DNA of 64,000 nt from the NCBI GenBank assembly GCA_020744425.1, contig JAGMUV010000006.1:1-64000 (forward strand), written 5' to 3'. Below are positions 2,387 through 52,300 of this stretch, one piece after another. The notes under the pieces are model-generated. The model was not told where the DNA came from, did no database searches, and saw nothing but the letters and a program-made list of their open reading frames with translations. This DNA comes from Dactylonectria macrodidyma (Eukaryota > Ascomycota > Sordariomycetes > Hypocreales > Nectriaceae). Numbering within the stretch: position 1 is the first letter of the stretch; the number at the start of each line of letters is the position of its first letter. Position numbers and translations under genes: made by a program.

Positions 2387-2828
2387 ACGTACTTAATAAG
2401 TGAGTAAGCTAAACAAGTGAGTAAGCCACTTTGAAATTTCCTAGTATTTACACCTTAAATAAAAATACCTTTAAAATATTCTCTAAAATTAAAACTAAGA
2501 GTAAAATAGCTAATATTATAGAAATAGTTCTATTATATATTAAGAAATAAATATAAATTTTCTTAGATTTTTTTTAAAAATTACTTAATAAGCTATATTA
2601 AAAATGCTTATTCGCACTATATACTTAGCTATTTCTATATAAAGGAATTTTTTTAAAAATTTGAAAAAATTATTATATAGTTTTCTTTTTAATTAAATAA
2701 TTAAAGTTATTTTTATTTTATTTTTAATAATTAGATAGTTAGTTTTAAAAATTTAAGGTTTAGCTCTTTTTAGTGTATAGTATATATAGCTTACTCGCTT
2801 GTTTGGCTTACTCACTTATTAAGTACGT
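2387..2828. mobile_element. Non-autonomous TIR element A (~440 bp, TA-flanked)
   Basis: Flanked by TA on both sides (2385-2386, 2829-2830). Left end is ACGTACTTAAT, then unit AAGTGAGTAAGCT, spacer AAAC, unit AAGTGAGTAAGCC. The right end, read inward, is ACGTACTTAAT, AAGTGAGTAAGCC, AAAC, AAGCGAGTAAGCT. The interior has no coding capacity and holds the conserved core ATTCGCACT at 2610-2618. TA flanks fit a Tc1/mariner-pogo type mobilising enzyme. Nearly the same interior sequence occurs in element D at 11514, which carries more C-to-T and G-to-A changes. Confidence 0.85.
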
Positions 2829-2830
2829 TA

Positions 2831-5690
2831 TATTATTATTAATAAAGAATAGTTAAGTTAATTGCTTTAAGATAGTAATATTTTAAATACTATTCTTTAA
2901 AGTTAAGTAAATACTATAAATATTAGACTTAAGGATAATTAAAAAGCAGAACCAGACTTTAAGGATAAGGTTATAATACTAGATGTTTTAATTAAAAATA
3001 TAGAGCTTAATGCTCTTTAGACTATTCTTATTAAAAGACTAAAAGATAGCTAGAGGCTTTTTTTAAGATCTTAGACTTAAGTGTAATATAAGCTAGAGCT
3101 TTTAAATATATATTATATACTAATTAATAAGTTTAACTAGTTACATACTCTATTCTTTTTAGCCTTTTCTTACTTCTTTTTAAATAGTAAAGCAGACTTT
3201 ATTAAACTTTAGTTATATTTTATTAATTATAAAGATTATATTAAGTATATAATATATTAATATAATAAGCATTTTATATATTACTTAACCTTCTGCTTTA
3301 TTACTTGTAATATATTAATATAATTATAAGTATATTTATAGTTTAAATTCTTTATAAAGTAATATAATAAGAAGTATTAATTACTTATATAAAAGTAACT
3401 TATTTAAGTACTTAAATATAGTAAAGACCTAAAAGTATAAGTATTAATTAACTTAATTATAAAATATATAATTTTTATTTATAGTATATATTTATTTTAA
3501 ATTAAAAAGAAGTAAGACTTTAAAGCTTATATTTATAACTTTAGTTATTTTAATATATTTATTATATTTAGCTTAGTAGATTTATATTAATAAAGTCTTT
3601 ATTAATATATACTTTAATATAATAGCTAATTAATTATTATTAAACTAAAGAGAATAGCTTTATTATATTACTTATTATAATAAAATCCTTATATTATTAC
3701 TTTTTACTTTTATTACTAATACTACTTCTTTTAGAATATTATATTAAGTAAGAAGTTTAGTATTATAAATTATTAAGATTAATATAAATAGTAAGGCTAT
3801 AGTAATTTATATAACTATAGCTTATATTAAATAGATAATTACTTTAAAACTAATATAAAGAAAGAAGCCGCTTATAATATATTTATATATATATAAGGAT
3901 TTTATATTACTATTATTAATCCTAAGCTAAGTAAGACTATATCTTAAAGTAAGGAAAATCCCTTAAGTATAAATCCTTTAAGTATAGAGATAATATTCTT
4001 ATAGCTCTTATAAATTATTAACTATTATTAATACTATAAGTATAATACTATTTACTACTTATATAAGGAAAAGAATTAGTAATTTAATAAAGGATATAAA
4101 AAGTATTATTATAAATATTAAGGCTATTAATATAGCTAATTTAAAAAGAGAGTATTACTTTAACTTCTTTCATACTTTATAAATGCTAGCTATAGTAATT
4201 AAAAAGGAAGGTAAGTTATACTATGTCTTTAAAACAGCTTAGAATAATAGCTTTATAAATAACTTTAATTCTATAATTATTCTAAGCTAGCTAGTTAATA
4301 TTAATATATCTTCTTATATTAGCTTATAAATAGTTATTATATATATTATAAAGTATTATAATAAATTTAAAAAGAAGACTAAGTCTTTTACTAAGCTTAT
4401 AAACTAAGTTTTACTTTATATATTATATATTCAACTCTTATTATCCTTCTCCTCTTACTTAATAAATAAGCTAATTATTAAAAGAGATTACTTAATATAA
4501 GAGATTTCTTATTTACTATTTAATATTTTACTATAAGAAAGTATTTATATAATTATTACTATAGACTGCTATTTATTAAAGTCATAAGTATATTTATATT
4601 ATATAAATAGAGATATTAATAAGGCTATTAATAATTATAGAAAATATTTAAAAAGAAAGGATTAATATAAAAATATAATAACGTATATAATAAGCTTGCG
4701 TAACAAACAAGTAAGTGTGACATTCTGATTTCCACCTTAAACTGCAGTTTTAAAATAATTCTTAAAAATTCAAATTAAGCCTAAAATAAATAAGATTTTT
4801 ACTCTAGCTTATTTATAAAATATATTATTTTTAAGAATTTTTTTAGGTTATATATATTTATAGCGCTAGCAGTATCAAATTCGCACTGTCTATTACACTA
4901 TATTTATTTATAACTAGCTTAATAATTTATTTAAAAATATAGAAAAAAGACTAGCTTATTAACTTTTTAGTTAAATATTTAAAATTAATTTCCTAAAAAT
5001 CTCAGAATTATAGAGCCTGTTTTAGAAATTTTAAAGTTTACACTTTTAGATATATAGTATAAGTATTATACAAGCTTGTTTATTACGCAAGCTTATTATA
5101 TACGTTATATTTTAAATACTTATAATTATATAATCTTAATATATAAAATAGACTTACTATTTATATAAAGAAGAGAGTATTATCTTACTTTCTTTAATAT
5201 AAATTTATAAAAGCTTCTTTTTAATTTAATAACTTTTATTATATTAAATTAATAATAGTTTATTTATATTACTTTCTAAAAGAGTTACTTATAGTAAGTA
5301 GTTAGTAGTTTAATTCTTTTATAATTAAGTATATATATTATAAATAGCTTTATAATATTTATATAAATAATTATTATAAAAAGCTAAATATAAATAAATT
5401 AATAGTAAAGAATAATAAGTTTAAACTTAAGGCTTATAAAGAGCTTATTATAAAAGAGAATTAGTATAAACTTACTTATATATTATCTAACTACTTATTA
5501 AAAGAAGAGAATATTAATATTCTTAACTATTAAAATATTAATATTAATTATAATTAGACTCTTTATATTAAGCAGTATATTAATAATAGTATTTTTAATA
5601 GTAATTATTAAAAGTAATATAAAATAGAAAATACTCTTAACTTTAATATAAATAATTAACTATTAAAGGCTTATAATTCTTTAAATTTAG
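2831..5690 (+). pseudogene. Helitron-type replicase relic, N-terminal/central part (RIP-inactivated)
   Basis: Not an open frame, but plus-strand translation of 4280-4680 gives a long block with stops only where CAA/CAG would be expected. It reads about LINKLIIKRDYLI*EISYLL, followed by an ITIDCYLL segment (about 4457-4600). From memory this resembles the conserved block before the PIF1 helicase part of fungal Helitron proteins (RDWSAQE, then a TVDCRP-like stretch). The frame resumes after inserted element B and continues to about 5690, where a repeat-R copy interrupts it. The helicase half follows at 6.8-8.8 kb on the same strand, which supports one original RepHel gene. The catalytic HUH/Rep part was not recognised. 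Element B is inserted in it and element A at its upstream edge. Confidence 0.5.
4681..5105. mobile_element. Non-autonomous TIR element B (425 bp)
   Basis: TA flanks at 4679-4680 and 5106-5107. Left: ACGTATATAAT, AAGCTTGCGTAAC, AAAC, AAGTAAGTGTGAC. Right read inward: ACGTATATAAT, AAGCTTGCGTAAT, AAAC, AAGCTTGTATAAT. Internal core ATTCGCACTG at 4879-4888. It sits inside the Helitron-type relic, whose reading resumes on the far side. No coding capacity. Confidence 0.85.
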
Positions 5691-5694
5691 AATA

Positions 5695-6375
5695 GTGCTT
5701 AGTATATAATATAGTAATAAGCCACTACTATTAAAACCACTATTCAGACTTTTATTTTTACATTATTACATTCCTTATTACTACATTTTTATATAGTTAT
5801 ATATTTATATTACTTAAGTTATTATAAAACGAAAGATTTAATTAATTAGTTAACCTAATTATAAATAGACTCTTATCCTTCTTCTTTTAATTATTAAGAA
5901 CTTATTAATAAAACCTCTTTTTATTATATCCTTTTATTATTCTCAGTCCTTTTATATATTAATAATAGCTATATTACTTATAACTTATATTATTTACTCT
6001 TTATTAATATTAGCTAATAACTCTAAGAATACTATTTCTTTTAAAGATACTTTAATTACTAGTTTTATTATTAGTTATTTTAAGAAATATTATTCATTTT
6101 TAATTTAGTTTTTAAATTATTAGTTACTTTTAAAGAAGTATAGTCTTAAGAATACTTTAGTCTTAAAAATTACTAAAGTGACTTACTTATTATTAAAGAG
6201 TTACTAAGTTTTAATAGTTCTAATTTCCTTAAGACTATAATTTATTACTATAACCTTTAGCTTATTAAGGGTTTTTATATTCTTACTAAGCTTAGTATTT
6301 AAGTTATATATAAAAAGAGTATAGTAATTACTAAAACCTAAGTTACTAAGAGTATAGAATGTATTATATTAAATG
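5695..6375 (+). repeat. Dispersed repeat R, copy 1 (heavily RIPed)
   Basis: About 680 bp that aligns with 43515-44250 in the same orientation and, for its first part, with the reverse complement of about 56310-56000. The copies differ mostly by C/T and G/A, with this one the most AT-rich. It lies beside repeat Y copy 1 just as copy 3 lies beside Y copy 2, so R plus Y are probably the internal 3' part and the LTR or terminal part of one retroelement. No confident protein reading. Confidence 0.55.
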
Positions 6376-6414
6376 TTTATTATAATATTTATTATAGTTA
6401 GTCTTTAATAAATT

Positions 6415-6800
6415 AAATTATAATTTAGAATTATAAAAAGGTAATTAAATTATAACTTAGAATTGTAATAAGCTTGGAATGTAATAAATACAGAGCCCTT
6501 ATAAGGCTCTTATTATATAACGATTTTGCCTTTTAATATCTAGCTTTTCTATTTAGCTTTTCTATCTAGCTTTTCTATCTAGCTTTTCTATCTAGCTTTT
6601 CTAATAATGCATTTTAAAGGGTTGAATAGAATAGTAAGGCTTGCACCTTAATATAGTAAAAACTCTAGTTATTCTAAGTTACTATTGCCTTAGGCTTGGG
6701 TTTTAGGCCTTCATACTGTTATTTACTATTAGTTATATTTTTCTTTAACTGTTTAACCTCTGGCCCCTCTCTGAGTGTACGCTACTAAAGACTATAACTT
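6415..6800 (+). repeat. Repeat Y, copy 1 (possible LTR), with a 14-bp tandem array
   Basis: Matches the reverse complement of 55290-55613 over its length, including the stretches around GCCTTAGGCTTGGGTTTTAGG and CTCTGGCCCCTCTCTGAG. Near its start (about 6538-6603) are about five tandem copies of the 14-mer CTAGCTTTTCTATC, where the other copy has about two. Position after repeat R suggests a 3' LTR, but I found no clean TG...CA ends or target duplication. Confidence 0.5.
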
Positions 6801-6829
6801 TAATAGTAATAGGCCACTTCTTAACTTAG

Positions 6830-11210: not shown

Positions 11211-11358
11211 TAGTTTTAAGTAAATTATAAGCTATATAAAAGAGCTTATACTAATAAAAATAAGACTCTTAAATTACTATACTTATTAAAAGTCTATATT
11301 AAATATAATAATATATTATAATAGACTTTTATTATATACTTAAGAATAAGAATGAATA

Positions 11359-12158
11359 ATATACTTAATAAGCAAGTGCTATAAATAAGCGAGCGCTATA
11401 CTTATATTATATACTTAAAACTCTAAATCTTAAATTTTTTAAAATAGGCTATATAGCTTTAAGATTTTTAAGATATTAATTTTAAAAATTAAAATTAAAA
11501 AGTTAATAAGCTAACGTACTTAACAAGTGAGTGAGCTAAACAAGCGAGTGAGCCACTTTAAAATTTCCTAGTATTTATACCTTAAATAAAAATATCTTTA
11601 AAATATTCTCTAAAATTAAAACTAAGAATAAAATAGCTAATATTATAGAAATAGTTCTATTATATATTAAAAAATAATTATAAATTTTCTTAGATCTTTT
11701 TTAAAAATTACTTAAGTTATATTAAAAATGCTTATTCATACTATATACTTAGCTATTTCTATATAAAGGAATTTTTTTAAAAATTTAAAAAAATTATTAT
11801 ATAGTTTTCTTTTTATTTAAATAATTAAAATTATTTTTATTTTATTTTTAATAATTAAATAGCTAGTTTTAAAAATTTAAAGTTTACCTCTTTTTAGTAT
11901 ATAGTATATATAGCTCACTCGCTTATTTAGCTCACTTATTTATTAAATACATTAGTATTTTTTTTAAACTTTTTAAAAAATAATTAAACTAGTTATAAAT
12001 AAAAATAGTAAAATAGATAGTGCGAATTTTATACTACTAGCACTATAAATATATATAATTTAAAAGAATTCTTAAAAATAATATATTTTATAAATAAGCT
12101 AATTTAAAAATCTTATTACAGCGCTCGCTTATTTATAGCGCTCGCTTATTAAATATAT
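11359..12158. mobile_element. Non-autonomous TIR element E, split by element D
   Basis: TA at 11357-11358 and 12159-12160. Left: ATATACTTAAT, AAGCAAGTGCTAT, AAAT, AAGCGAGCGCTAT. Right read inward: ATATATTTAAT, AAGCGAGCGCTAT, AAAT, AAGCGAGCGCTGT. Core AGTGCGAAT at 12019-12027. Removing element D (11514-11952) and one TA leaves about 360 bp, shorter than its relatives. It lies in the Gypsy integrase relic, so the order of insertion is Gypsy, then E, then D. Confidence 0.8.
11514..11952. mobile_element. Non-autonomous TIR element D, inserted inside element E
   Basis: TA at 11512-11513 and 11953-11954. Left: ACGTACTTAAC, AAGTGAGTGAGCT, AAAC, AAGCGAGTGAGCC. Right read inward: ATGTATTTAAT, AAATAAGTGAGCT, AAAT, AAGCGAGTGAGCT. 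The interior is close to that of element A (2387), with more C-to-T and G-to-A differences; the core reads ATTCATACT instead of ATTCGCACT. Confidence 0.82.
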
Positions 12159-13450
12159 TATAACTATATATAAGTAATTATTAATTAGCTTAATAAGATC
12201 GCTTTTTCTATACTTTATTACTAAATAGTAATAGTAAAGAACATTATATATATATACTATTATTATATTTATTATATTTTTAAAGTATTAAAAATAGTAA
12301 TATTAGATTAAGGACTATAGTTTATTATTACTTTTATAAATAAATTATATAGGCTTATTTAAGTAAAGTAAAAACTAAGTATAGTAAAGTACTTTTAAAT
12401 AGATAAAAATACTAAGATTTATAATTAGTACTTAAATTACTAATTATAACTATTTATTAAGTATTATTAAAATAACTAAAATGAATTATTACTATTAATA
12501 GACTATATATAAATAAATCTTTATTATAAGTTGCTAAATATAGAACTAGTAAGACTATTATTTAGCTATTTATTCTAATCTTAACTTAATTAGAATACGA
12601 GAACTAATCTTAAAGGTTATAAATTAAAAGCTAAATATTTATTAAAAGAGAATACTTAGTAATATATTAAGCAGATTATAGACTTTATTAAAGTTATTAA
12701 GTAAAATAGTAGATTTCCTATATTAATAAAAAGTGTTAAAAACTGGATTTTATAATTAAAGATAAAGTCTAAATTAATATATATAGACTTATAAGTATAA
12801 GATCTAATTAAGTATTAAACTAAAGAAAGAGAGAGCTATAGATTATTATAAAATAAGTTAAGTATTTATATTATTTAAACTTACTTTTTTTATAATATAT
12901 AAACCTAATTCTATATATAAATTAATTATAACATTATTCTAATAATCCTATATTAAAATAAAATAAAGACTTCCTATTATTTAAAGTTATTAATAATATT
13001 AAAAAGTATAAGGTTTATAAAGTTAAAGAATTATAATATAATAAATATAATAAATAGTTTTAATATAAAGTAAACTAAGCTAGATATAACTTTAATAATA
13101 AATAGTATTTTATTAAAAACTTTAAAAATATACTAATATAACTAAAGAAGTTTTATAAAGAATATTTAGAAGTATTTAAGTTACTAAAGTGATTATAAGC
13201 TTAGGTTAATATAGCTATTATAAATATAGATATATTAAAGCACTTTAATAATAATTAACTAATTAAACTAAGCTAAAAGCTTAAGAAAGCATAATAAAAA
13301 TAAAGAGTCTTTATTATTTAATAATTATAAGAATTTAATAACTTATACTTATATAGCTATTTTAAGTACTTTAAAAAGAGGAGTAATATAATAAAAGTAT
13401 TTAAAGTACTAGACTTAGAATAGGGCTAATATATAATTAGGATGTATAGA

Positions 13451-14180: not shown

Positions 14181-14242
14181 TATAGAGTATTTTAAAGACT
14201 AGGCTAGGATCCTCTTACTAGTCTATACCCCTCCTTCTATTT

Positions 14243-17636: not shown

Positions 17637-17638
17637 TA

Positions 17639-17783: not shown

Positions 17784-20700
17784 CTAGCCCTCGTCATCTG
17801 TCTCGATCTGTGTCTCGATTAGACTCCTGATATCAATAAGTCCTAGCTGTCTGACGAAGAGTTCGAATTTCTGACCAGGCAGGGGCTTGGTCAGACCGTC
17901 TGCTAGCATCTCTGCTGTTTTCGTGTATTTGACTTGAAATAATCCATTGAAGTAGGACTGCCGGGCCCAACAGCTGTGGATATCAACGTGCCGTAGGGCT
18001 GTTCGGATCCGCGGGATCTGCAGAGTGATGAGCCGGATCGTCTGTTGGTTGTCACACTGAATGACTAGCTGTTGGTCTAGCTGAAGGTCTAGCTGTTGGA
18101 ATAGCCGTTGGGTAGCTAGGGCTTCCTTAGCTGTGTGTGTGAAAGCAAGGAGCTCTGCTTCTGTAGATGAAGTTGTAACTGTATCCTGTTTCCCGGCTTT
18201 CCAGCTAATAGGTCCGCCGAACAGAGTCATGATCATCCCTTGGGACGATTTCCGGGTCTTCGGGTCGTCTGCGAAGGCTGCGTCTGATGCAACTAGGAAT
18301 TCGAGGTCCTGATCCGTCTGATCGGCCGGGCCCGGGGCGGCTGCTGATCCGGCTGCTGATCCGGCTATTGGAATTGCGATTTGAATGATCGGTATTTGAG
18401 AGCTTTGACCGCTGAATTGGATAGCTAGATATCGGGTTGCGTAGAGGTAGATGATGACCCTATCTGCGATCCGGTGATGGTCTTCCGTTGGATTGAGTAA
18501 GTGTTCTGCTAGCCGGGCTGCGGCCTTAGCTACGTCAGGCCGGCTGATGACTGCGATGTAGTTGATCGATCCGACTTTCTGCTGGAATAGGATCACCTGG
18601 TCCTGCTGGGCTTGATACGGGTTTTTCCGTAGGTCGTTGGTTGGTAGAGGGTTTCCTTTGAAATCGTCGGTTAGCTTGACCTTAAAGCGGGCAGCTGTTT
18701 TCTCGATGTATGAGTCCTGACAGAGCCACAGCTTCTTAGCTAGCTTATCCCTTAGAATTCGGATCCCTAGGAACCAGGAAAGGTCCCCAAGGTCCTGCAT
18801 CTGATACCGCTGTTTGAGCCTATTGATCAGGGTCTCAGCAGCTAGCTGATCCTTTGTTCGATATAGCAAGACGATATCGTCAACGTAGAAGAAGACGGTC
18901 AGCCAGCTGTTGTTGCAGATACAAGGGTCTTCTGCACACTGCTGCAGACCTAGCTGCTGGAAGGTCTGAAGGAGGTCTCGTTGCCACAGTAAGGGTGATC
19001 TGCGTAGCCCGTATAGGGCCTTTCGTAGCCGTAGACTCCATCCGTGCCGTTTGAATCCATCCGGGCAGCGGATGTAGACTTCTTCGTCTAGTGGGCTGTT
19101 GGTGAAGGCGTTGATTGCGTCTAGCTGCCTAGCCTCTAGCTGGAATTTAGCTGCTATAGCCATAAGGACCCGGAAGGACCTTCCTGCTAAGGTTGCTGCA
19201 TAGGTCTCTTTGTCGTCAAGGGGCTGAAGATCCCCTCGGACACAGAGCCGGGCCTTGAACTTCGTAAGGAACCCATGCTTATCCGTCTTGTATTTAAAGA
19301 CCCAGGTCGTCGGGATAGGGGTCTTTTTGGCCTGTTCGGATAGAACAGCCTCAAAGGTCCCTTGACCCCACAGGTCTCTCATCTGGATCTCGCAGGCCTG
19401 CTTGAATTGGCGGCCAAAGGGGTGATTTTCTAGCTCTTTGAAAGTCCTAGGTTCCGGCGGAAGGTTCCGTCTGTGGAGCTTTTCTTCCCTTCCGTTGAAG
19501 AAGCTGCTGAAAAAGCTAGCCTTTCGGATTGGATCGATAGCTGGTTCGTCTGCTGGGCCGGTTCCTTGGCCCCTGATGCGGTCTGAGGCTCGAGACGCAG
19601 CAGGCCACGGTCTTCGCGGTCCTCGTGGGCCCCCTCGTCTAGCCGGCTCTGACGTCTGTGTCGGCTCCGGGCTAGGTTGCCTGCTAGTTGGGCTGCCGGG
19701 CTGTTCCGGCGGCGTAGAAAATGGAGGATCCGGGCTTTCGGATGGCGGTGCCGTTGTCTGTGGGGTCGGAAGATAGGGATCTTCGTCATCGTCGTCGTCA
19801 GAGTCCTTGTCTTCCTGCTCGTTGAGATCTAGATCTTGGAACGCTAGGTCTTCCGGATCCGGGCTGCCCGGACTGTCCGGATTAGCTAGATCGGGTGTGG
19901 CTTCGGTACGGTCCGTAGCGTCGTCCGGGTCCGTGTCTTCGGGTCCGTCTGACCTATCGAGGTCATGTTGATCGGGCTGTTCGTGCTGATCAGGGTCATC
20001 GAGGGCTACCTCGATCGTTGACCTGATTTCCTCGTCTTCATCACTATCGCTGTCAATGTGGGCTGGAAGCAGGAACCGCACCCTAGGCTGTCGAATTGGC
20101 TGAGGGATTGGGTGGTTCTTAGGATCATAGAAGGTTTTCTCGTCGAATGTGACGTCCCTGACCCTCCGGACCTCTGACCTTTCCGGGATCCAGATCCTGA
20201 AGATGTTGTTCGAATCGTATCCAACTAGGTAGCCGATTTCTGCGTGGGCGGCTGTCTTTAGGTCCCGTTTTTGAGTGCTCTTCAAAGCTTCCGTAGTCAT
20301 TGGATAGGCCCGGCAGCCGAAGGCCCTAAGGTGCGTTAGATCCGGCTGTCTGGAGACGAATCCGGTGTCCTTTCCTTGGTCTTGAAGCCAGGAAATTAGC
20401 AGCCCTAAGGGGGTCTTCCAGTCTCGGGCCTGTTGGGGCGATCTGTTATATAGGAAGACAGCTGTTTTCCAACCCTCGGACCAGAGATCGGGCGGCAGGT
20501 TAGACCCTAGTAACATAGACCTGTTCTTAGGAGCTATTACCCCCCCAGATCGTTCGGCAGGGCCGTTCTGAGCCGGGTTGTGAGGGCTCGAGGGTTCGTC
20601 CTCGATCCCTTCGTCAGTCATCCAATTGATCGATCGGATGCCTAGGGCCCTGTCGTTGTCCCTATGGATCCGGCAGATCCGGAGCCCGTATTGTGTCCGG

Positions 20701-22718
20701 ATGTAGGATACGAAGGCCTGTAGGGCCCCTAGGACTGAATCCTGTGTCTGATCGGATAGAAGATAGATGTGGATTAGGCCTGTGTATTCATCTTTGATCA
20801 GCAAGGCAGCCTGTTTTCCGTCATAGCTTGTGTGGAAGCTAAAGAGGTCGATGTAGACCCTCCAATAGGGTCTCGGAGCTATTGTCTGCGGGCTTCGTCG
20901 GGAGACCTGTCTGCTAGCCTTGGCAAGGGAGCAGGCTTCGCAGTCTATTGCGATAGGTCCCTTGATACGGACCCCTAGGGTCTGATCCGTAAGATGTTCA
21001 AGAGCCCGGGCGTTCAAGTGGCCTAGACGTTGGTGCCAGAGGATGGATTCGGCTGTCTGAGGCGCCCTAGGGTCTTTGGAAGAGGCTGCGGCTGCTGCTA
21101 GCAGGCCCGTTGGTCTGCCTTGGTCGGCAGAGGCTGCGGCGGCTGCTGTGGCCGAGATCGGTCTGACCTCGTTGAATTCGATGACTTGTTGGCGATGGTA
21201 CCGTCGGGTATAGAAGATAGTCTCTATCCCTTGGAAGACGGCCCCTGTTTTCGGGTTCCAGTTGTATCCGGCTAGGATCATAAGATCTAGCGAGACAACG
21301 TTCGTGTGGAAACCCGGGATATAGGCTGCCCGTCTGAGCTGGAAGAGCCCGTCTTCAAGCCGTAGGTTGACCTGACCGTAGCCTAGGATTTGCAGCTCGG
21401 ATCCGCCTGCAAAGATAGGCTCGGGGTTCCTAGAGGGCTGATAGGATGAAAAGCGTAAGAGGTTATTACAGATGTGTGTGTCTGACCCGGAATCAAGGAT
21501 AAAGGAGTCCCTGAGCGGATAAACCCTCCCTGGAACGGTTATGACGGAAGCCGTAGATAGGATCGTTAGAGCCGGCTGCTGTTCCGGTTGCCGACCTAGC
21601 TGCTGACCTTGCTGTTGGTCCGGCGGCTGTGTGGTCTGAAGGGAAAGGCCGGCAAAGGAGCTGCCCTTGATGTAGCCTTCATCCCTGTTGTCTGTAGTGG
21701 CCTTTGGGGCCCCTGGCTGGGTATCCCTAGGCTTCTGTCTCTGCAGAGCTCGATCTACCCGTTGTTTCGTAGCAGGGTCTTCGAGCTGTTGATTGATCTG
21801 GAATTCTATGTCTTGGTTAGGCTTCCATCCGGCCGGGCGGATAGAAGTAACTAGGTAAGGGCATTTTGAATAGAAATGCTGTTTGCCACAGAGGCAGGGG
21901 GTCTTTGGTCCCTCGGATCCGTTAGATCCGGCAGGCTTAGAAGAGCCGGTTTTCTGGAACGTGGAAAAGGACCCTTTCGGTGCCTTCGTCTCTGTAGCCT
22001 GTTTTTCGAACAGCTCGCTGATCTCAATACCGTCCGGGATCTTAGCTTCCCAGTCTTTCTTGCCCTTTGATGCCTTATATTGGATCTTATTCATCCAGAT
22101 ATCGGCGAAGGTGAGGTCCATCGGTCTGACAGCTTCTAGGAAGTCTAGGGTTGGTCTGAGACCCTTGGAGTCAGGAAGGCCTAGATTACGGGCTTCCGTA
22201 AGGACCTTCTGCCAGCTTGTGACCCAGTCCTTAGTCTTAGTCCGGCCGGGCCCCTTGAGGGCTGTTCGATATCGGTCAAGGACTTCTCTTTCATGGAACC
22301 AGGTAGCTGGCTGGATCCGGGCCCGTAGGAGGGCTAGTTCCTTTGCAACGTCATCTTCATCGTCGATGACATCTCGATAGTTGCCGACGGTCAGGATGAT
22401 CCGGTCTTGGATAGCGGATAGGGCCTTTTGGCGTTTTTCGTAGATTCGGACGTTTTCGAGATACTGTTTCTCAAGGCCATTAAGGTCAATCCTTTGGTCT
22501 GGGGTCAGCTCAGACAGCCTAGTCGCATCAGGCTTGATGTCTGCAGCTGTAGGAAAGACCGGTCGGGCTAGGGACTTCTTGTTTTCCTTAAAAGGGTCAA
22601 TGAAGTCCCAGACGTCCTTCGTAGTAGCCGATTTCCGGATGCTGGCTATCCAGTGTTTCCAATCACTAGGCCCGTTGAGCTTGGCCCAGGAAGAGGCTTC
22701 CGTATCAGCAACGCCCAT
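17784..22718 (-). CDS. Copia Gag-Pol polyprotein, intact (1644 aa)
   Basis: A single frame for all retrotransposon functions; acts in cytoplasmic particles and the nucleus. Gag-like region about 1-270, with a short CxC-x4-H-x4-C knuckle at 275-286. Aspartic protease: LDSGSD at 408-413. GAG-pre-integrase: WHQRLGHL at 561-568 and CEAC at 593-596. Integrase core: Asp 624 (VYIDLF), Asp 687 (HRDND) and Glu 722 (PAERSG). A low-complexity acidic/proline linker spans about 888-1030. Reverse transcriptase (RVT_2) about 1120-1360, with Asp 1200 (LDAINAF) and YVDD at 1278-1281. RNase H from about 1475: VASDAAFADD, SSTEAELLA (1517-1525), CDN. No stop or frameshift, and the usual catalytic residues are present, so it could be active. 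The ATG at 22718 is 182 bp inside the 5' LTR, a normal leader. Gag and Pol are fused without a frameshift, as is usual in Copia. Confidence 0.96.
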   Translation of the reverse strand: MGVADTEASSWAKLNGPSDWKHWIASIRKSATTKDVWDFIDPFKENKKSLARPVFPTAADIKPDATRLSELTPDQRIDLNGLEKQYLENVRIYEKRQKALSAIQDRIILTVGNYRDVIDDEDDVAKELALLRARIQPATWFHEREVLDRYRTALKGPGRTKTKDWVTSWQKVLTEARNLGLPDSKGLRPTLDFLEAVRPMDLTFADIWMNKIQYKASKGKKDWEAKIPDGIEISELFEKQATETKAPKGSFSTFQKTGSSKPAGSNGSEGPKTPCLCGKQHFYSKCPYLVTSIRPAGWKPNQDIEFQINQQLEDPATKQRVDRALQRQKPRDTQPGAPKATTDNRDEGYIKGSSFAGLSLQTTQPPDQQQGQQLGRQPEQQPALTILSTASVITVPGRVYPLRDSFILDSGSDTHICNNLLRFSSYQPSRNPEPIFAGGSELQILGYGQVNLRLEDGLFQLRRAAYIPGFHTNVVSLDLMILAGYNWNPKTGAVFQGIETIFYTRRYHRQQVIEFNEVRPISATAAAAASADQGRPTGLLAAAAASSKDPRAPQTAESILWHQRLGHLNARALEHLTDQTLGVRIKGPIAIDCEACSLAKASRQVSRRSPQTIAPRPYWRVYIDLFSFHTSYDGKQAALLIKDEYTGLIHIYLLSDQTQDSVLGALQAFVSYIRTQYGLRICRIHRDNDRALGIRSINWMTDEGIEDEPSSPHNPAQNGPAERSGGVIAPKNRSMLLGSNLPPDLWSEGWKTAVFLYNRSPQQARDWKTPLGLLISWLQDQGKDTGFVSRQPDLTHLRAFGCRAYPMTTEALKSTQKRDLKTAAHAEIGYLVGYDSNNIFRIWIPERSEVRRVRDVTFDEKTFYDPKNHPIPQPIRQPRVRFLLPAHIDSDSDEDEEIRSTIEVALDDPDQHEQPDQHDLDRSDGPEDTDPDDATDRTEATPDLANPDSPGSPDPEDLAFQDLDLNEQEDKDSDDDDDEDPYLPTPQTTAPPSESPDPPFSTPPEQPGSPTSRQPSPEPTQTSEPARRGGPRGPRRPWPAASRASDRIRGQGTGPADEPAIDPIRKASFFSSFFNGREEKLHRRNLPPEPRTFKELENHPFGRQFKQACEIQMRDLWGQGTFEAVLSEQAKKTPIPTTWVFKYKTDKHGFLTKFKARLCVRGDLQPLDDKETYAATLAGRSFRVLMAIAAKFQLEARQLDAINAFTNSPLDEEVYIRCPDGFKRHGWSLRLRKALYGLRRSPLLWQRDLLQTFQQLGLQQCAEDPCICNNSWLTVFFYVDDIVLLYRTKDQLAAETLINRLKQRYQMQDLGDLSWFLGIRILRDKLAKKLWLCQDSYIEKTAARFKVKLTDDFKGNPLPTNDLRKNPYQAQQDQVILFQQKVGSINYIAVISRPDVAKAAARLAEHLLNPTEDHHRIADRVIIYLYATRYLAIQFSGQSSQIPIIQIAIPIAGSAAGSAAAPGPADQTDQDLEFLVASDAAFADDPKTRKSSQGMIMTLFGGPISWKAGKQDTVTTSSTEAELLAFTHTAKEALATQRLFQQLDLQLDQQLVIQCDNQQTIRLITLQIPRIRTALRHVDIHSCWARQSYFNGLFQVKYTKTAEMLADGLTKPLPGQKFELFVRQLGLIDIRSLIETQIETDDEG

Positions 22719-23184: not shown

Positions 23185-24714
23185 GATTTCCCCCGCGACT
23201 GTATAATATTAAAGAAATAGCTAACTGACTACTTACTAACCGCAATGCATCACTTATTAGCAAGCACTAGGCTTCTAACTTCATTAGGCAATAACTAGAC
23301 CTTAAGATGCGTTTTTTTTATAAATATGACTATTAGAGGGCTAAATATGAAGATCTAACTATTATTTATAATTAGTTCTAGCTTATAAAGAATATAATTA
23401 TAAAATATAGTATTAACCTAGCTAATATTTATAACTTTAATAAGACTGGCTTTATAATAAGTATAATTATAAGTAGAATAGTTATTATAAGTATAAATAG
23501 GTATAGAAACTTAAAATCAGTTTAGTTTAGAAATTAGGAATGGGTTATAGTTATTTAAGCAATTAATACAAAAGGCTAGGCAATCTAGCCATTTATTATA
23601 ATTATAGGCTAATATTACCTTACTAGCTAGTATTAGGAAAGTAACCTCCTAAGTAATTAAGCTATTATAATAACTCTAAATAGCTAGATTAATAATAAAA
23701 TAAGTCTTAAGTAGCTTAAGCACTTTAATTAGTATATAAAGAATCGATTAATTAGTTATTATTATCTTCTAATCCTTAATAAGTATAAAAGTCACTACTC
23801 TATTAACTTTAAGAAATATTATAAAGAGAACTATATTATTACGCTTTATATACTGCTTTATTTATCTTACTTACTTTAGCCTCTTAATGTTAGATGCTTT
23901 AGGCCGCTTAAAATAGCTTATAGTTAAGTAATTAAGTAATTAATTAGATGCTTTATAACTTATGTTTTAAAGACTGAGTTCTTTCTAGCCTTCTATACTG
24001 CTTATAAAGCTACTATAATAAGGAATAATATTAAAAAAGGTTTCTAAAAGGCCAGACTTATTCCCTTTAACCTAGAAAATGTTATATTAAAGCTTAATAT
24101 ATAGCTATAGACTCTAATACTAGCTATAGAGGAGGTCAGCCTTTCTAACCCTTAGGTCTTAAAGACTTTAAAGATAGTACTTAAAGCCAGTTCGCAATCT
24201 GAATACTTTAAAAGATAAATAAAAAGGCATTAGAATAGCTCTCTAGTATCTATTCTTAAAGCGCTTAAATCATTTTCTAAGGGAATAAAAGCAATAATAC
24301 ATTAAATAGTATTACTAAAGTCTAAGAACCAGATCCTTTAATAAGTAAATAAGACTCTTAGTAAGTAGCGCAAAGTAATAAGAACCTACTTATATAAAAG
24401 AGGGAAGATAACTTTAAATAAGGGAAGGGATAAAATAAATTAGAAAGACATTAATACGCAAGTAGTAGCTAAATCGTTAAGAAGTAGTAGTTAAAGGAGG
24501 TTAGTGCTACTAAGGGAAAGGCACTATAGAATATATAGAAAGGCTGATTATAATATAAGGACCTATTAGATTATAATTAAGACCTCTAAAGAAGAGAATA
24601 GTAATTAGTTTTAATTTATTTAATGCTTTATTATAGTTTTATTAAGGTTTTAATTTTAAAGGTTAGGATTTATAGTTTACTCACTTATTTAGCTCACTCA
24701 CTTATTATATATAT
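23185..24714 (+). mobile_element. Element C2: second pogo/Fot1-type copy, 5'-truncated and RIP-inactivated
   Basis: Aligns with element C from about 9690 to its right end. NIYNFNKTGF is at 23424-23453 and YLL*PLNVRCFRPLK starts at 23868, the same frame and the same CAG-to-TAG change. The right terminus read inward from TA (24715-24716) is ATATATATAAT, AAGTGAGTGAGCT, AAAT, AAGTGAGTAAACT, whose tail (TGAGCT) matches element D rather than C. The left terminus and first ~330 bp of C are absent; no matching piece exists left of Copia1, so the truncation is not explained by the Copia insertion alone. Confidence 0.75.
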
Positions 24715-24716
24715 TA

Positions 24717-27254: not shown

Positions 27255-27256
27255 TA

Positions 27257-27684
27257 ACGTATATGATAAGCATGCCGGTCAAACAAGCTTGCCGGTCACT
27301 CATACTGTACGGCTAAAAGTAACAATATTAGATTTTCAAAAACGGGCTATATAACTATTAAAAATATAAAAAAAGCATTTTTAAATATTTAAAGAAAAAG
27401 AAAATAGTATAGGATTTTTCTTAAATTTTTAGCTAGCTTATTATATATAAAAATATGAAAGTACACAGTGCGAATAGGCCTTTTCTTAATAACTTTATAG
27501 AAAAAAATAAGTAAAGTTTTATAAAATCTTCTTAAATATTATATTATATAATTAACCTATGTTTTAAGTTTTAGCTATTTTAGGCCTAGTTCTGATTTTT
27601 AAGAATTTTTTAAAAATTGCGATTTAAGGTATAAAATGCAAGTGACCGGTATACTTGTTTGACCGGCATGCTTATCATGTACGT
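27257..27684. mobile_element. Non-autonomous TIR element G (428 bp)
   Basis: TA at 27255-27256 and 27685-27686. Left: ACGTATATGAT, AAGCATGCCGGTC, AAAC, AAGCTTGCCGGTC. Right read inward: ACGTACATGAT, AAGCATGCCGGTC, AAAC, AAGTATACCGGTC. Core CAGTGCGAAT at 27466-27475. It has the least mutated termini of the set and is the best reference copy. The CCGGTC tail is shared, in RIPed form, with element F. Confidence 0.88.
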
Positions 27685-27686
27685 TA

Positions 27687-32151: not shown

Positions 32152-32159
32152 TTAGTATG

Positions 32160-35131: not shown

Positions 35132-35133
35132 TA

Positions 35134-35557
35134 ACGTATATAATAAGCGAGCGGCGCAGACAAGCAAGCGGCGTAGTAAGATTTTCACTTTAAATCACGA
35201 TTTTCAAATAATTCTTAAAATTTCAAACTAGGCTTAAAATAGTTAAAATTCTGAACTTAGCTTATTTATAATATATATTATTTTTAAAAAAATTTTAAGC
35301 TAGAGATACTTATTGCGCTAGTACTATAAAATTCGCACTGTTTTTTTTACTATTTTTACTTATAACTAGCTTAATAATTTTTTTAAAAGTCTAAAATAAA
35401 TACTAGCTTATTAACTATTTAATTAAAGATTTAATATTAAATCTCTAAAAATCCTAGAGCTATATAAGCTATTTTAAAAAAATTTAAGTTTAGAGTTTTA
35501 AGTGTATAGTATATGTGCGCTGCTCGCTTGTTTATGCCGCTCGCTTATTATATACAT
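35134..35557. mobile_element. Non-autonomous TIR element H (424 bp)
   Basis: TA at 35132-35133 and 35558-35559. Left: ACGTATATAAT, AAGCGAGCGGCGC, AGAC, AAGCAAGCGGCGT. Right read inward: ATGTATATAAT, AAGCGAGCGGCAT, AAAC, AAGCGAGCAGCGC. Core ATTCGCACTG at 35331-35340. Inserted in the PIF1 fragment. Confidence 0.85.
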
Positions 35558-35660
35558 TAGTTATATAGCTTAAATTAGTTTAAAAGTCTTAGTAAAATAG
35601 ATCTATAACTATTATATCTTTAATAATGCTTTATAACTTATATATAGTAATTATATAATA

Positions 35661-36083
35661 ACGTATATAATAAGCGAGTAGGACAAATAAGCGAGCGTAA
35701 CACTTATATTATACAGCTAAAAGTATAAACTTTAAAATTTCTAAAATAGGCTATAAAGCTCTACAATTTTTAGGAAATTAATTTTAGATATTTAACTAAA
35801 TAGTTAATAGGCTAGTCTTTTTTTTATATTTTTAAAAAAATTATTAAGCTAGTTATAAATAAAATAGCTAAAAAACAGTGCGAATTTAATACTACTAGCG
35901 CTATATGTATATATAATCTAAAAAAATTCATAAAAATAATATATATTATAATTAAGTTAAATTTAAATTTTTAGCTATTTTAGGCTTAGTTTGAATTTCT
36001 AATAATTTTTTAAATATTGTGATTTAAAGTGAAAATCAGAGTGTCACGCTCGCTTGTTTGTCCCACTCATATATTATATATGT
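35661..36083. mobile_element. Non-autonomous TIR element I (423 bp)
   Basis: TA at 35659-35660 and 36084-36085. Left: ACGTATATAAT, AAGCGAGTAGGAC, AAAT, AAGCGAGCGTAAC. Right read inward: ACATATATAAT, ATATGAGTGGGAC, AAAC, AAGCGAGCGTGAC. Core CAGTGCGAAT at 35876-35885. Here the outer and inner units carry two different tails (GGAC type outside, CGTRAC type inside), each conserved between the two ends. Confidence 0.84.
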
Positions 36084-36085
36084 TA

Positions 36086-43448: not shown

Positions 43449-43514
43449 ATTAGTATGCTTATTATATATATTATATTAAAAAAATATATTTTTAAAAATT
43501 AAAGAACTATAAGA

Positions 43515-44250: not shown

Positions 44251-44251
44251 G

Positions 44252-47800: not shown

Positions 47801-49033
47801 CTTTCTTAGATAATTACTAATTTCTAAGTCTAGTTCTATAACTATCTTACTCTTAACTGCCTTAGTTAATCGCTTTATATTAAGATTAAGCTCACTCTCC
47901 TATTTAGAGTTAACTTATATAACTATTTAACTTAGCTTCTTATTAAGATTAAACAATTTAAAGATTTTACTATTAAGGCTAATATCCAGTTACTATAGAC
48001 TATATTAGCTCACTTAGTATATATTCTTACTAAATAGTCTTACTTTACTAACTACTTTTTTATAACTCTTAATAAAGCTTTTTATTATATTAAAGCCTTA
48101 CTTATAGCTCTTATTAAAAATACTAATCTAATTATATATCGTTATTACCTTTCTAGCTATTTTTCTTATATAATATGCTTTTAGAGCTATATTCTAATCC
48201 CTTTTTATACTTATATCTTATATCTTACTTTTATAAGTAGTTAGTATACTAATTGCATTTAGTATAACTATTCTAGCTATAACTAGAAATAGCTGACTAG
48301 CTATATTCTAATTAATTACTATTAGAGTCTTTATAATCACTCCTTAAGTAGTGCTATAACTACTAAGTCTTATACTCCTAATTTCTAAATAGCTAATATA
48401 CTTAATCCTATGTCTTACTCTTGAATTATTACTAGTTACTTAGCTAAAGGAGGCTCTATAGTTAATTAAGCTACTATATACTAAGTAGCTACTTAATCTA
48501 CTTAAGTTTTAAAAGATAAGTTCTATCCATTTTAAATACTATTTATAATGTTTTCTTTATTAGAGTCTTTCTATTTTTAATATTATTTAAGTCTTTTAAA
48601 AAGGATAGTATAGAAATCTAATAGTTCTTTTACTCTATAGTATTTCTATTTGCTTTCTTACTCTTATCTTTATAATTACTTCTAGACTTTACTATACTGT
48701 TTTATCTGCCTTTTTATATAGAAGCCTAGCTATTCTTAGTATACTTTTTATATTCTTAAGTATTTAATTAGATACTTTTCTAATTAATATACTTATTCTT
48801 TTAATCTTATAGTATTTTAAGGATTTATACTTTTATATTTATTTAAAGTCCTTTTTATAATTAGATAAGCTCATTCATTTACTCTTCCTAAGCCTTAGTT
48901 TATAAGTTCTATAGTTTTATCTCTATTTACTAATAGTTAAGTATTTTATTAAACACTTTCCTATTAGTTCTTATTTAAAAACCCTAATTAAATAGCTCTA
49001 GAATCTTATTATCTTTATTACTAACTTACTATC
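44824..49033. repeat. RIP-degraded AT-rich DNA, unassigned
   Basis: 4.2 kb without an open frame. A coding-like plus-strand stretch interrupted by CAA/CAG-type stops runs through about 46600-47150. I recognise no family. A pyrimidine-rich section lies at 47420-47520. Confidence 0.5.
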
Positions 49034-49282
49034 TGTGAAGGCTATAGCAGTGGAAGGAGTGGAAGGAGTGGAAGGTTATTAGTGGAACTCGGCGATTGTG
49101 GGTCAAGGAATTGACCAATCAGAAAAGGGATTGAAGATTCAGAAAGAGCAGGAAAAGACGATCAGAAGGATAGTCAGTTTGATGTGATTGGTTGAGAAAA
49201 TGCATGTGTATTCAGATTATAATCCTTCTGGACTGGCTAGAGAAAAGCCCCAGCTTTATAGAGAGATTGCTGTCTAGTCACA
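49034..49282. repeat. Unmutated 249-bp segment with TGTGA...TCACA ends (possible solo LTR)
   Basis: Balanced composition inside RIP DNA; normal composition continues to about 49340. Begins TGTGAAGGC and ends GTCTAGTCACA. Contains three tandem GTGGAAGGA-like 10-mers at 49050-49075. No target duplication seen (CTATC left, TGTCC right) and no second copy in the window, so the LTR call is tentative. Confidence 0.35.
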
Positions 49283-49340
49283 TGTCCAATCTAACAGGGG
49301 ATTTGGACAATTTGTCATAGTAAAACCGGGTAAGACGTGT

Positions 49341-52300
49341 CCCGAGTTTTAGGACTGTTAGACGTATATCTGATGCTTGAACTCTAACCTTATTGAAGGT
49401 TCTTATTATAGATGTCTTTTGTAGTTATAGTATAAGGAAGATAGGCTTTCTGAGGCATAATATATACTATTATAAAGCTAAAAATCAGTAGATTTTGAAT
49501 ATATTATTTATAGTCTTATCTAATAAGAACTAAAGGAGATATTTCCTTATCAGTTATATATTTTATATATAAGGACTTTACACTATCCCTAGCTATCCTT
49601 AATAAACTGCTTAAGTTAATTGCTATTATTTACTCTTAGGATTCTTATACTATTTAAAGTCTTAATAATATATGTTTTTTTATCTTTAAAGGCTTTTTTA
49701 ATTCTAAATAGTTTTAGCTATTTAGGCTTAAGTTTAGCTATAGTAAACATATTATTATAGTTTTAAATATTATACTATAAGACTAGGTCTCCTTTCTTTA
49801 GAAGTGACTTATAGAGCCTAAAAGCATTCTTTTTAATAGCCTTTTGAGTATTATTATATTTATAAGCTGTAACTTTCTCTCTGGCTTTTTCTACATCTTC
49901 TTATTATCTCTTTAGGATCTAGATCCTAGCTAGAATTACTTCTTCTATTATTTTAATATTATCCTAGTCAATTAGTTACTAAGTAAGGACTTTGACTTTT
50001 ATTAAAAGGATCAGTTCCTATCTATAGAATAAGAAAAAGGGCAATCTCTTATAAGATCCTTAGACTATAGACATATTTATTAATAGTACTTTTTTAACTA
50101 AATAGACCTATTTATCTAATATTTTAATCTTTTTAAAGTAATTAATAATAGATATATAGCTAACTTTAATAACTTTATTAGCTTTTAAGTTATAGACTGT
50201 GATTTTTACTATAGTAATACTAAGCTTATCTAAATCCTTTAGAATACCTTTCTGGATTTCCCTTTTATTATTTATAATAATTCTTAATAGTATAACGTGC
50301 ACGATAAGCGAGTGCACCAAACAAGTGAGTGCACCACTTATACTGTACAGCTAAAAGTCATAATTTTCAATTTTCTAAAATTAGATATATAATTCTAGGA
50401 ATTTTAAGGAATTAATTTTAGATCTTTAAATAAAAAAGTCATAACATAGTATTTTTTCTAGACTTTTAAAAAATTTACTTAGCTCTTTAAAAATAAAAAT
50501 AAGAAAAAAAACAGTGCGAATAAGATTATTTTAAATAACTTTATAAAGAGTTTTTATAAAAACCTAGAAAAATAATTAATTATTATAAGTAAATTAATAC
50601 ATCTATTTTTTAAATTATAGCCATTTTAAGCCTAGTTTGAATTTTTAAGACATTTTTTAAAAATCGTATTTTAAAGTGTAAACTTGCTTTAGTGCACTCA
50701 CTTGGTTAGTGCACTCGCTTATTATATACGTTACTATAATAATAAATAATTATTTTTATAAACTTCTTAATATAGTAAGCTAATAGATATAGTATTATTA
50801 TAGCTTTAATCTATTTAATAAAGTTATATTTTGCTTTTAGTAAGAACTTTATTCTACTATTTAAAAGTAAGTACTAACTATTTATATAGATCTTTATTAT
50901 TAAATACTAAGAGGCTATTAGTATTAACTCTTTAGTAACTTATTATACTATATAAAATTAATAGGTTAGATAAGCGTTTATTATTTTTTCTAAATCCTAT
51001 CTTATACTTTATTAGAAATAGTAATATCTAAGCAGTTTCTAAGTAATTAATCGTCCTTTATAACCTCCTTTTAAATAATAGGATCTTATTAGATGCTTTT
51101 AAACCTCTTAGGAGTTAATAATAAGTACTAGGTCCTTTCCTTCTTTTAATTCTTTATATTAAATCTAACTTCTTTAAATAAAATATTAAGTAGCTTTCCT
51201 AGCTAGTTATTAATAGTCTTTAGTAACTATTCCTTCTAGTCTTTATAATATTATAAGGAATTTAGCTAATACTAGCTACTGATTAATATAATTATTTTCT
51301 AAAGGTATCTCTTTTAGTCTAAATAGAATAGTATTAAAGTAAGTATTAATAAATTCTTTTACATTCCTTTTAGCTTCTCTATTCTACTAATTAGATTCGT
51401 TTACTAGCTTTTTAAAAAGCCTATTAACTATACTATTCTTTTTACTAAGAATATACTTAATTATAATATTAAATAATAGGATATAGCTAATCCATCTTAT
51501 TATTATAATAATAAGAATATTATCTACTTTATTATTAATTTAATTAATTAGAATATAAGAATCAGTCTTTAAAATAAAAGAGATGTTATATAAATGCATT
51601 TATAAGCATCTAATAGTATAAAGCACTTCTTTATACTCTAGCTTAGTTATATTATAGCGCTTCTTAATATTAGTTTAAGAGCTAGATTTATAGTATACTA
51701 AATAACGCTTTCTCTTCTAAACTCTTATAAAGATAGTACTCTAGCTAAAGATTAATAAGTCAGTTATTAAGATAATTAGCCTACTTTTTACTAATAGATC
51801 TAATAAGATAAGTATAAGGGCGGTTATAACTATAGATTTTAAAGAATCTATTACTTTTTATTATTCCTTGCCTTACTCCTAGAGTGTGTCTTTCTTTAGT
51901 AGTTAAGTCAGTAGTAAGACTATTTATATATAGTATAAGATCTAAATTTAATAATAGCTAGAGATTTTTAAGAAGGCTCTGACTTATATAAGGTCTTTAT
52001 ATAGTTTCTACTCTAGAATTTTTAGAGTTTTAGCTTCTATAGGTTTCTAGCTGCTTATACTATAGACAAAGCCTACTATCTCTACAGTTTTCTAGTAATA
52101 GCTGGACTTCTTTATAAAGATTATACAGTCTGTAAGCTCTACGTTTAATAAGACCTTATTTAGGTTAATTAAATGCTTAAGGATATAGTGTTTAATATTA
52201 AGAAGGGATTCTTCTCTTCTATAATCAGTTTCCAGTCCTTTAATCCCTATATTATTAATAAAGGCTTAAGTAATATCTAGTAATAAGTTAAAGAGGATTC

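What the first reader, a model, noticed from the sequence alone, without database searches (positions are those of the whole stretch)
2387..50731. A terminus architecture with a variable, element-specific hexamer tail repeated four times
Ten elements (A-J) and the right end of an eleventh (C2) share 11-bp ends (mostly ACGTAYWTAAT) followed by two 13-bp units whose starts are 17 bp apart. The first seven bases of the unit are nearly constant (AAGCGAG type). The last six differ: GTAAGC (A), CGTAAC/TGTGAC (B), TGTAAT (C), TGAGCY (D), CGCTAT (E), CCGGTC (G, and RIPed in F), CGGCGY (H), TGCACY (J). In most elements all four units of the same copy carry the same tail. Element I has one tail in both outer units and another in both inner units. 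This is what a two-site recognition signal with diversifying specificity would look like, perhaps keeping relatives from cross-mobilising. I know of direct repeats inside inverted repeats in Tc1/mariner elements, but not of such a swappable tail.
Basis: seen in the sequence. Interest (0 to 1): 0.87.

Follow-up and report, generated by a model that had tools for sequence, protein, structure and literature searches.

The report
Jumping genes with interchangeable address tags
Closely related jumping genes in a fungal genome each end in their own six-letter DNA tag, and the enzyme that moves them varies most in the few amino acids expected to read that tag, so one genome appears to hold many jumping-gene families kept apart by matched tag-and-reader pairs.

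Summary
The elements are a pogo/Fot5-like transposon and its MITEs. Each end is TA, 11 bp, then two 13-bp units 17 bp apart: a near-constant core plus a six-base tail. The two-unit pattern occurs 950 times in the genome, 6 times reversed. In an alphabet that RIP cannot change, 87 of the 100 listed places have one tail in both units; shuffling gives 16.6. Some window tails are RIP forms of one class.

Full-length copies encode transposases that vary most at the third helix of the N-terminal HTH (aa 35-42). Helix and tail co-vary beyond backbone relatedness (0 of 20000 permutations), and the peak of 545 protein windows lies there. I read 16 tail classes with a helix. Body trees reject 3 of 3 same-tail clades tested, similar MITE bodies carry different tails, and 3 of 28 copies with both ends read have mixed ends.

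The 17-bp repeats and Fot5/mFot5 were known; I did not find the helix-tail covariation in print. Linkage explains part of it. Binding and transposition are untested.

The parts
2385..2830 (.). Element A: 446-bp MITE, TGAGCC tail class, RIP-damaged
   Evidence: both ends paired; body 99% R/Y-identical to D
4679..5107 (.). Element B: 429-bp MITE, AAGCTTG core, CGTGAC class, RIP-damaged
   Evidence: same core and tail as full-length L066 and L075
9350..11212 (+). Element C: 1863-bp full-length RIP-damaged autonomous copy, TGCAAC class
   Evidence: tblastn aa 5-551, 55% to L066; helix region read
11357..12160 (.). Element E: MITE of the CGCCGC class, interrupted by D
   Evidence: body 97% R/Y-identical to the L001 CGCCGC MITE
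11512..11954 (.). Element D: 443-bp MITE, TGAGCC class, nested in E
23187..24716 (+). C2: 5'-truncated RIP-damaged full-length copy; right end at 24716 with TGAGCC-type units
   Evidence: tblastn aa 79-551 at 23187-24605; end
27255..27686 (.). Element G: 432-bp MITE, CCGGTC in all four units
35132..35559 (.). Element H: 428-bp MITE, CGGCGC class
   Evidence: transposase copies with that tail have helix KEQRLRRR (L082, L083)
35659..36085 (.). Element I: 427-bp MITE with outer tail TGGGAC and inner tail CGTGAC at both ends (RIP-damaged in part)
   Evidence: same arrangement in full-length L078 and L126
37982..38386 (.). Element F: RIP-damaged CCGGTC MITE, right end degraded (end approximate)
50293..50733 (.). 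Element J: 441-bp MITE, TGCACC class
   Evidence: transposase copies with that tail have helix DYHALRRR (L049, L057)

Best explanation
The elements are pogo/Fot5-like cut-and-paste transposons and the MITEs they mobilise. Each end holds two transposase-binding sites 17 bp apart. In each site the conserved second HTH (Tc5 type) probably holds the near-constant core, and the third helix of the N-terminal HTH (aa 35-42) reads the six-base tail in the major groove. The transposase lineage varies most at that helix, and the tails at both ends change to match, so one genome carries at least 16 parallel tail classes. The 5' end plus HTH1 often behaves as a cassette that recombines between similar backbones, and MITEs change ends likewise. 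Shown: the architecture, the within-element tail concordance, the hypervariable helix, the helix-tail covariation, the mosaicism. Inferred: direct base reading by the helix, mobilisation only of matching tails, and selection against cross-mobilisation or titration by relatives as the driver.
For: Tail concordance: 87 of 100 places in RIP-proof letters, shuffled mean 16.6, max 32. Both ends of one copy: of 34 copies looked at, 25 carry one tail class at both ends, 3 are mixed, and 6 have no readable 3' end. Variability: mean entropy at aa 35-42 is 1.69 bits against 0.32 in the Tc5 HTH (18 own proteins), with the two highest positions at aa 37 and 35 there and in 112 proteins including 111 relatives. 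Association: partial Mantel r 0.53, 0.49, 0.41 for aa 35-40 in sets of 28, 23, 18 with backbone distance removed, 0 of 20000 permutations as high in each; the best of 545 windows along the protein starts at aa 36, r 0.66, and the best starting beyond aa 60 is 0.31 (18 proteins); 0.60, 0.62, 0.55 after removing distance in the linked flanks (aa 35-41). Prediction: inner tail as predicted in 33 of 37 copies read later, shuffled maps mean 2.8, max 16. Minimal pairs: the 4 helix pairs whose tails differ only at base 3 differ at exactly aa 35 and 37. Structure: aa 36-43 is the third helix of a trihelical N-terminal domain in both models. Mosaics.
Against: No binding or transposition data. Helix and 5' tail lie close together, so shared ancestry of that segment explains part of the covariation: flanks alone still correlate with the tail after removing the helix, partial r 0.44-0.45, 0 of 20000 permutations. 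Module and body identity are themselves correlated (r 0.49), and only 2 of 6 same-tail pairs are more alike in the module than in the body. dN/dS at the most variable residues is 0.65, not above 1, with dS near saturation. Three helices go with one tail (CGGATC) although they differ at 35, 37, 38 and 40, and in the 8 helix pairs that share a tail aa 35 differs in 4 and aa 37 in 2, so the code is not one-to-one. The outer TGGGAC of class I is not what its helix predicts. A few positions outside HTH1 (155, 294, 498, 505, 527) are also variable among the 18 own proteins. The DBD model has modest confidence (mean pLDDT 63.6) and its CENP-B match is weak.
Confidence: 0.84

Rival explanations
1. Hitchhiking: helix and tails co-vary only because they sit in one 5' segment inherited together, and the tail is not read by that helix.
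For: Flank distance correlates with tail distance after removing the helix, partial r 0.44-0.45. The first ~300 bp behave as one block in L061/L066 and L063/L066.
Against: The 3' end about 1.76 kb from the start codon carries the same tail class in 25 of 28 copies with both ends read, although bodies do not group by tail in the three groups tested. The helix effect is larger and remains after removing the flanks. Variability peaks on the third helix of the HTH, and the 4 base-3 pairs differ at exactly aa 35 and 37 (three of the four pairs come from one trio).
Confidence: 0.11
2. RIP plus copy history: the apparent tail classes are products of C-to-T damage in a few MITE families.
For: True for part of the list: A versus D and C's TGTAAT are RIP derivatives.
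Against: Nine purine/pyrimidine classes remain among the concordant ends, and open-frame full-length copies carry clean, different tails.
Confidence: 0.02
3. Relaxed constraint: HTH1 is dispensable, so its third helix and the tails drift; concordance of the four tails comes from gene conversion between the ends.
For: dN/dS at the helix is below 1. Inverted arms are exact over about 40-55 bp in most copies, as end-to-end conversion would give.
Against: Drift does not give a helix-to-tail map that fits further copies or the minimal pairs; residues L39 and R42 are invariant.
Confidence: 0.03

Closest known systems
Fot5 and mFot5 of Fusarium oxysporum (PMC3599309, passages read)
   Same: pogo-like; a source names a relative 75% identical to L057 'Fot5 transposase' (P0059); MITEs under 500 bp with similar TIRs
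   Different: treated as one family in the passages seen; no tail classes or helix variation mentioned in them
Trem, Aft1, Tan1 fungal Tc1/mariner-pogo elements (PMC2836289, passages read)
   Same: about 1.85 kb, TA target site, 42-49 bp TIRs with a 17-bp internal direct repeat, psq HTH + CENPB + DDE; the repeat was suggested there as the HTH/CENPB binding site
   Different: no matched diversification of tail and recognition helix in the passages seen
pogo superfamily, Fot family (PMC7386202, passages read)
   Same: HTH_psq and/or HTH_Tnp_Tc5 DBD, DD35D, 40-60 bp TIRs, TA sites in clades FotC/D
   Different: within-family specificity not treated in the passages seen
mariner families that lost cross-recognition (Lampe et al. 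2001; recalled; one search lists only papers holding that title phrase)
   Same: idea that diverged transposase-end recognition lets several families share a genome
   Different: recalled as whole-protein and whole-TIR divergence, not one helix and one hexamer
Sleeping Beauty / Tc1 IR-DR ends (recalled)
   Same: two transposase sites per inverted repeat
   Different: recalled as long TIRs with widely spaced sites; here sites are 17 bp apart
PRDM9 zinc fingers; HsdS target-domain shuffling in restriction systems (recalled)
   Same: DNA-contact residues diversify or shuffle on a conserved body
   Different: unrelated proteins; here the target sites lie on the same mobile element

Membership tests
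pogo/Fot (Fot5-like) | DDE_1 catalytic domain | tested here: met
   PF03184, E 1.1e-31 to 1.6e-30 in 3 of 3 proteins scanned
pogo/Fot (Fot5-like) | HTH_Tnp_Tc5 DNA-binding domain | tested here: met
   PF03221 over cut-off at aa 62-120 in 3 of 3
pogo/Fot (Fot5-like) | N-terminal HTH_psq domain | tested here: inconclusive
   no PF05225 hit at E 0.001 in our three; many listed relatives carry PF05225; the model shows three helices 6-19, 25-31, 36-43
pogo/Fot (Fot5-like) | DD35D triad | tested here: met
   D276 invariant, D163 and D312 nearly invariant in 62 sequences; the assignment as the triad is mine
pogo/Fot (Fot5-like) | TA (or TAA) target site and 40-60 bp TIRs | tested here: met
   TA precedes 16 of 16 window ends printed without asking for it; three fetched copies (L054, L055, L097) lack it; exact arms about 40-55 bp in most copies. 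Empty sites not seen
pogo/Fot (Fot5-like) | 17-bp direct repeat in the TIR | tested here: met
pogo/Fot (Fot5-like) | transposition activity | not testable with these tools
   needs an experiment
Tc1 IR/DR elements (definition recalled) | long inverted repeats with widely spaced sites | tested here: not met
   exact arms about 40-55 bp, sites 17 bp apart
CENP-B-type bipartite DNA-binding domain | same fold as CENP-B 1-129 | tested here: inconclusive

The most novel reading that the evidence does not exclude
A transposon lineage that speciates inside one genome by exchanging address cassettes: a recognition helix and the matching hexamers at four sites are switched by point changes and by recombination onto similar backbones, non-coding MITEs switch their ends to follow, and the result is a set of mutually insulated transposition systems with a natural, readable helix-to-base code that may be shared across Fusarium and other ascomycetes.
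Probability: 0.5. Interest if true: 0.92.

Novelty: new variant of a known kind. Interest (0 to 1): 0.85.

Why it matters
How many related transposons can share a genome without moving or titrating each other is an old question. Here one genome offers at least 16 natural variants of the same enzyme that vary most at one helix, each with its matching site written four times on the element. That makes the specificity code of an HTH domain, and the evolution of new transposon families, directly testable by swapping a few residues and bases. It also gives a way to pair orphan MITEs with their transposase, and a set of candidate orthogonal transposase/end pairs for genome tools.

Tried and rejected
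RIP alone as the source of the classes: rejected (open-frame copies), though it explains A versus D and C. Localised hypermutation of the helix: silent divergence at codons 21-40 (0.58 at same-residue codons) is near the top of the range elsewhere (about 0.22-0.62), so not exceptional. Positive selection with dN/dS above 1: not shown. A PDB sequence match for the DBD: none at E 0.1. Naming the organism: the nearest named proteins are from Fusarium, but transposons are repeats and one ankyrin gene is no proof; left open. An autonomous partner for the CGACGC tail: by eye, no place with that tail lies at a transposase start listed; one search scored only 150 of 720 candidates. The first pattern search found nothing because it asked for a gap of at least 2 bases that is not there.

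Choices that affect the counts. In some searches I set four tails by hand: L051 (outer unit has an extra base), L054 (inner reads TGCCGC, set to CGCCGC), L055 (5' end used; its 3' end reads TGGGCC), L107 (one unit left; only). L058, L065 and L073 were left out for broken frames or ends. The seven residues in the dN/dS row were picked as the variable ones. In one search the map uses only the copies fetched first (L048-L074), but I wrote it after seeing all copies. With the noted pairing five more of the 37 would be misses (28 of 37). 14 of 60 copies were skipped as unreadable. The four inner-tail misses (L076, L088, L100, L120) have lost or shifted units and still contain the predicted hexamer out of register; I counted them as misses. 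One search lists only the first 100 of 950 places, all on contig C1. Not all of 847 and 720 candidates were scored. In one search three of four same-tail groups were tested; the pair L051/L068 (CGTCGC) was not. The scan asks for TA in front of an end, so TA there is no evidence; one search is. The CGCCGC-type end of L054 has one unit left at its 3' side.

Literature searches: open-licence library only. Papers seen as passages only: PMC4188875, PMC3599309, PMC3072357, PMC7386202, PMC2836289; all others as search listings.

Full report
What is there. The window lies on contig C56 of a 77-Mb genome in 77 contigs, probably fungal by its genes. Its first 55 kb are mostly AT-rich. Each end reads TA, an 11-bp terminus, then two 13-bp units 17 bp apart. 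The 11-bp terminus alone is in excess over chance (32 against 12.5). The two-unit pattern, asked for without the terminus, occurs 950 times in the genome and 6 times when read backwards.

Tails agree within an end. RIP changes only C to T and G to A, so I compared tails as purine/pyrimidine strings. In the first 100 listed places (all on contig C1) the two units agree in 87 (28 letter for letter). Shuffling inner units among ends gives 16.6 on average and never more than 32 in 10000. Eight of the 13 exceptions have the purine/pyrimidine pattern of element I. Nine purine/pyrimidine classes remain among the concordant places, so RIP cannot have made them all.

The autonomous partners. A family search lists 154 DDE_1 transposase matches in the genome, of several families. 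Full-length copies of about 1863 bp have the same ends as the window elements and encode transposases of about 551 aa; three scanned have DDE_1 and HTH_Tnp_Tc5 domains. Element C of the window is a RIP-damaged copy of this kind. Of 22 full-length copies fetched, 18 have one tail class at both ends (14, with single-base differences in L048 and L074; L058, L065 and L067; L054, with one unit left at the 3' side), L055 is mixed, and L051, L070 and L073 have no readable 3' end. Of 12 further 3' ends, 7 match their 5' end, 2 do not and 3 were not found. Element I's arrangement, TGGGAC outside and CGTGAC inside, recurs at both ends of full-length L078 and L126, so it is a class of its own.

The hypervariable helix. 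In 19 aligned N-termini, aa 56-170 vary little while aa 30-55 vary much. Mean entropy is 1.69 bits at aa 35-42 against 0.32 in the Tc5 HTH and 0.41 in the catalytic domain (18 proteins). In 112 proteins (111 database relatives of 530-560 aa out of the 120 listed, many named Fusarium, plus L066) there are 64 different octamers at aa 35-42, and aa 37 and 35 again have the highest entropy. Both predicted models make aa 36-43 the third helix of a trihelical N-terminal domain. In an HTH that is the recognition helix (general knowledge).

Helix and tail go together. Read from 5' ends: DYHALRRR-TGCACC; H[YF]W[AT]LYRR-TGCAAC; DERRLRRR-CGCCGC; NEHRLRRR-CGTCGC; KEQRLRRR-CGGCGC; SRRTLERR-CGCGCA; GRMxLWRR-CGTGAC; xxKKLGRR-TGTCCC; CHQKLGRR-TGTCAC (outer unit TGTCGC); HRNTLRRR-TGGGCC; DRTTLRRR-TGAGCC; KYSTLFDR-CCGGTC; HYSTLLDR-TCGGTC; PPSTLYDR-TCGGAA; three helices-CGGATC; SNATLRRR-YGGTCA. 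That is 16 classes. With backbone distance removed, the partial Mantel correlation of aa 35-40 with the tail is 0.53, 0.49 and 0.41 in sets of 28, 23 and 18, with 0 of 20000 permutations as high. Scanning 545 six-residue windows in 18 proteins, the best starts at aa 36 (0.66); starting beyond aa 60 nothing exceeds 0.31.

A test on further copies. I took 16 helices from the copies fetched first with their 5' tails, and scored the 60 5' ends fetched later. Forty-six were readable; 37 had a helix within one residue of a known one; the inner tail was as predicted in 33, allowing RIP changes. Shuffled maps gave 2.8 on average and at most 16. The four misses have lost or shifted units. The outer tail also differs from prediction in the two class I copies. 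The map was written after all copies had been seen, and one pairing (CNKKLGRR) had been corrected from my note; with the noted pairing the score would be 28 of 37. Many later copies are relatives of the earlier ones, so this is not 37 independent events. Helices two or three residues away (KEQRLRRR, SRRTLERR) carry new tails.

Hints of a code. The four helix pairs whose tails differ only at base 3 differ at exactly aa 35 and 37 (the trio DERR/NEHR/KEQR gives three pairs, HRNT/DRTT one). The eight pairs that share a tail differ at aa 38 in 5, at 35 in 4, at 36 in 4, at 37 in 2 and at 40 in 2, so aa 35 can also change without a new tail. The three helices with aspartate at aa 41 have tails of the form [CT]CGG[TA][CA]. 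CGGATC is reached by three unlike helices, so the code is degenerate.

Linkage is a real confounder. Helix and 5' tail lie close together. Removing distance in the 5' UTR and flanking codons leaves a helix-tail partial correlation of 0.55-0.62, but the flanks also keep 0.44-0.45 after removing the helix. The argument that this is function and not only descent rests on the far 3' end carrying the same tail class, and on where the variation sits.

Cassettes that move. L061 and L066 are 80-100% identical over the 25 middle windows of 60 bp, but 48-73% over the first five windows (end, UTR, HTH1) and 68% over the last; L063/L066 is similar (63-82%, 78-100%, 65%). L049/L057 and L051/L068 share a tail and are more alike in the module (0.93, 0.90) than in the body (0.88, 0.83), but the other four same-tail pairs are not, module and body identity correlate at 0.49, and L064/L070, whose tails differ by one base, are alike in both (0.94, 0.93). 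A tree of the bodies rejects a clade of the CGGATC copies (p-AU 2e-36), of TGCACC (0.012) and of CGCCGC (0.001); the fourth same-tail pair was not tested. MITEs behave alike: bodies of B, H, I, L001, L002b and L005 are 87-95% identical in R/Y letters and carry six tail arrangements, while L005 and L009 share CGTCGC on different bodies (79%, the level of unrelated bodies in that table). Three copies have mixed ends: L085 (TGGGCC with a CGGCGC type) and L123 (CGCGCA with a CGGCGC type), and L055 (TGTCCC with TGGGCC). Mixed ends are what a single crossover in the shared body would leave.

How it probably works. Domain order in the protein (HTH1, Tc5 HTH, catalytic) mirrors the order on the DNA read from inside outward (tail, core, terminus). 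I infer that the Tc5 HTH holds the core next to the cleavage end and HTH1 holds the tail, two transposases per end. Changing the helix creates a new tag; elements and MITEs whose tags match are moved, others are not. Why this is favoured is open: escape from titration by MITEs, or avoidance of mixed-end synapsis. I could not test either.

What was known. Internal 17-bp direct repeats in fungal pogo TIRs, and the suggestion that HTH and CENPB domains bind them, are in print (passages of PMC2836289). Fot5 and mFot5 are described (passages of PMC3599309). Searches for matched helix/TIR diversification found no such report by their listings. That library is open-licence only, so absence is weak evidence.

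Generality. A second pogo family in this genome shows a like plan with n = 2: L052 and L053 share a CCCTTT core with tails CGCCA and CGGTCA and have different HTH1 helices.

Noticed in passing
window 17784-22718, minus strand: 1644-aa open frame with copia-type reverse transcriptase and GAG pre-integrase domains: a Ty1/copia-like retrotransposon ORF.
   Followed up: no
window 57244-58350 and 62315-63844, minus strand: An ankyrin-repeat protein 96% identical over 91% to a Fusarium oxysporum f. sp. vasinfectum protein, and a HET-domain protein, in the GC-rich right part.
   Followed up: partly
L016-L033 and L034-L046: Other DDE_1 transposon families in the genome with AGTCGCCC and AGTCAG ends, many open and near-identical copies.
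   Followed up: no
L065 (3' end) and L055 (3' end): Ends with three tandem units instead of two (TGCAAC x3; TGGGCC x3).
   Followed up: no
L116: A telomere-like TAACCC repeat directly upstream of a truncated transposon end, inside a contig.
   Followed up: no
genome-wide, for example G000:C1:2851350-2851765: Tail CGACGC seen in pairs of ends about 400 bp apart (MITEs) and some single ends; no transposase start listed lies at one of them by eye.
   Followed up: partly
L052, L053: A second pogo family with two 17-bp-spaced units, shared core and different tails and helices.
   Followed up: partly
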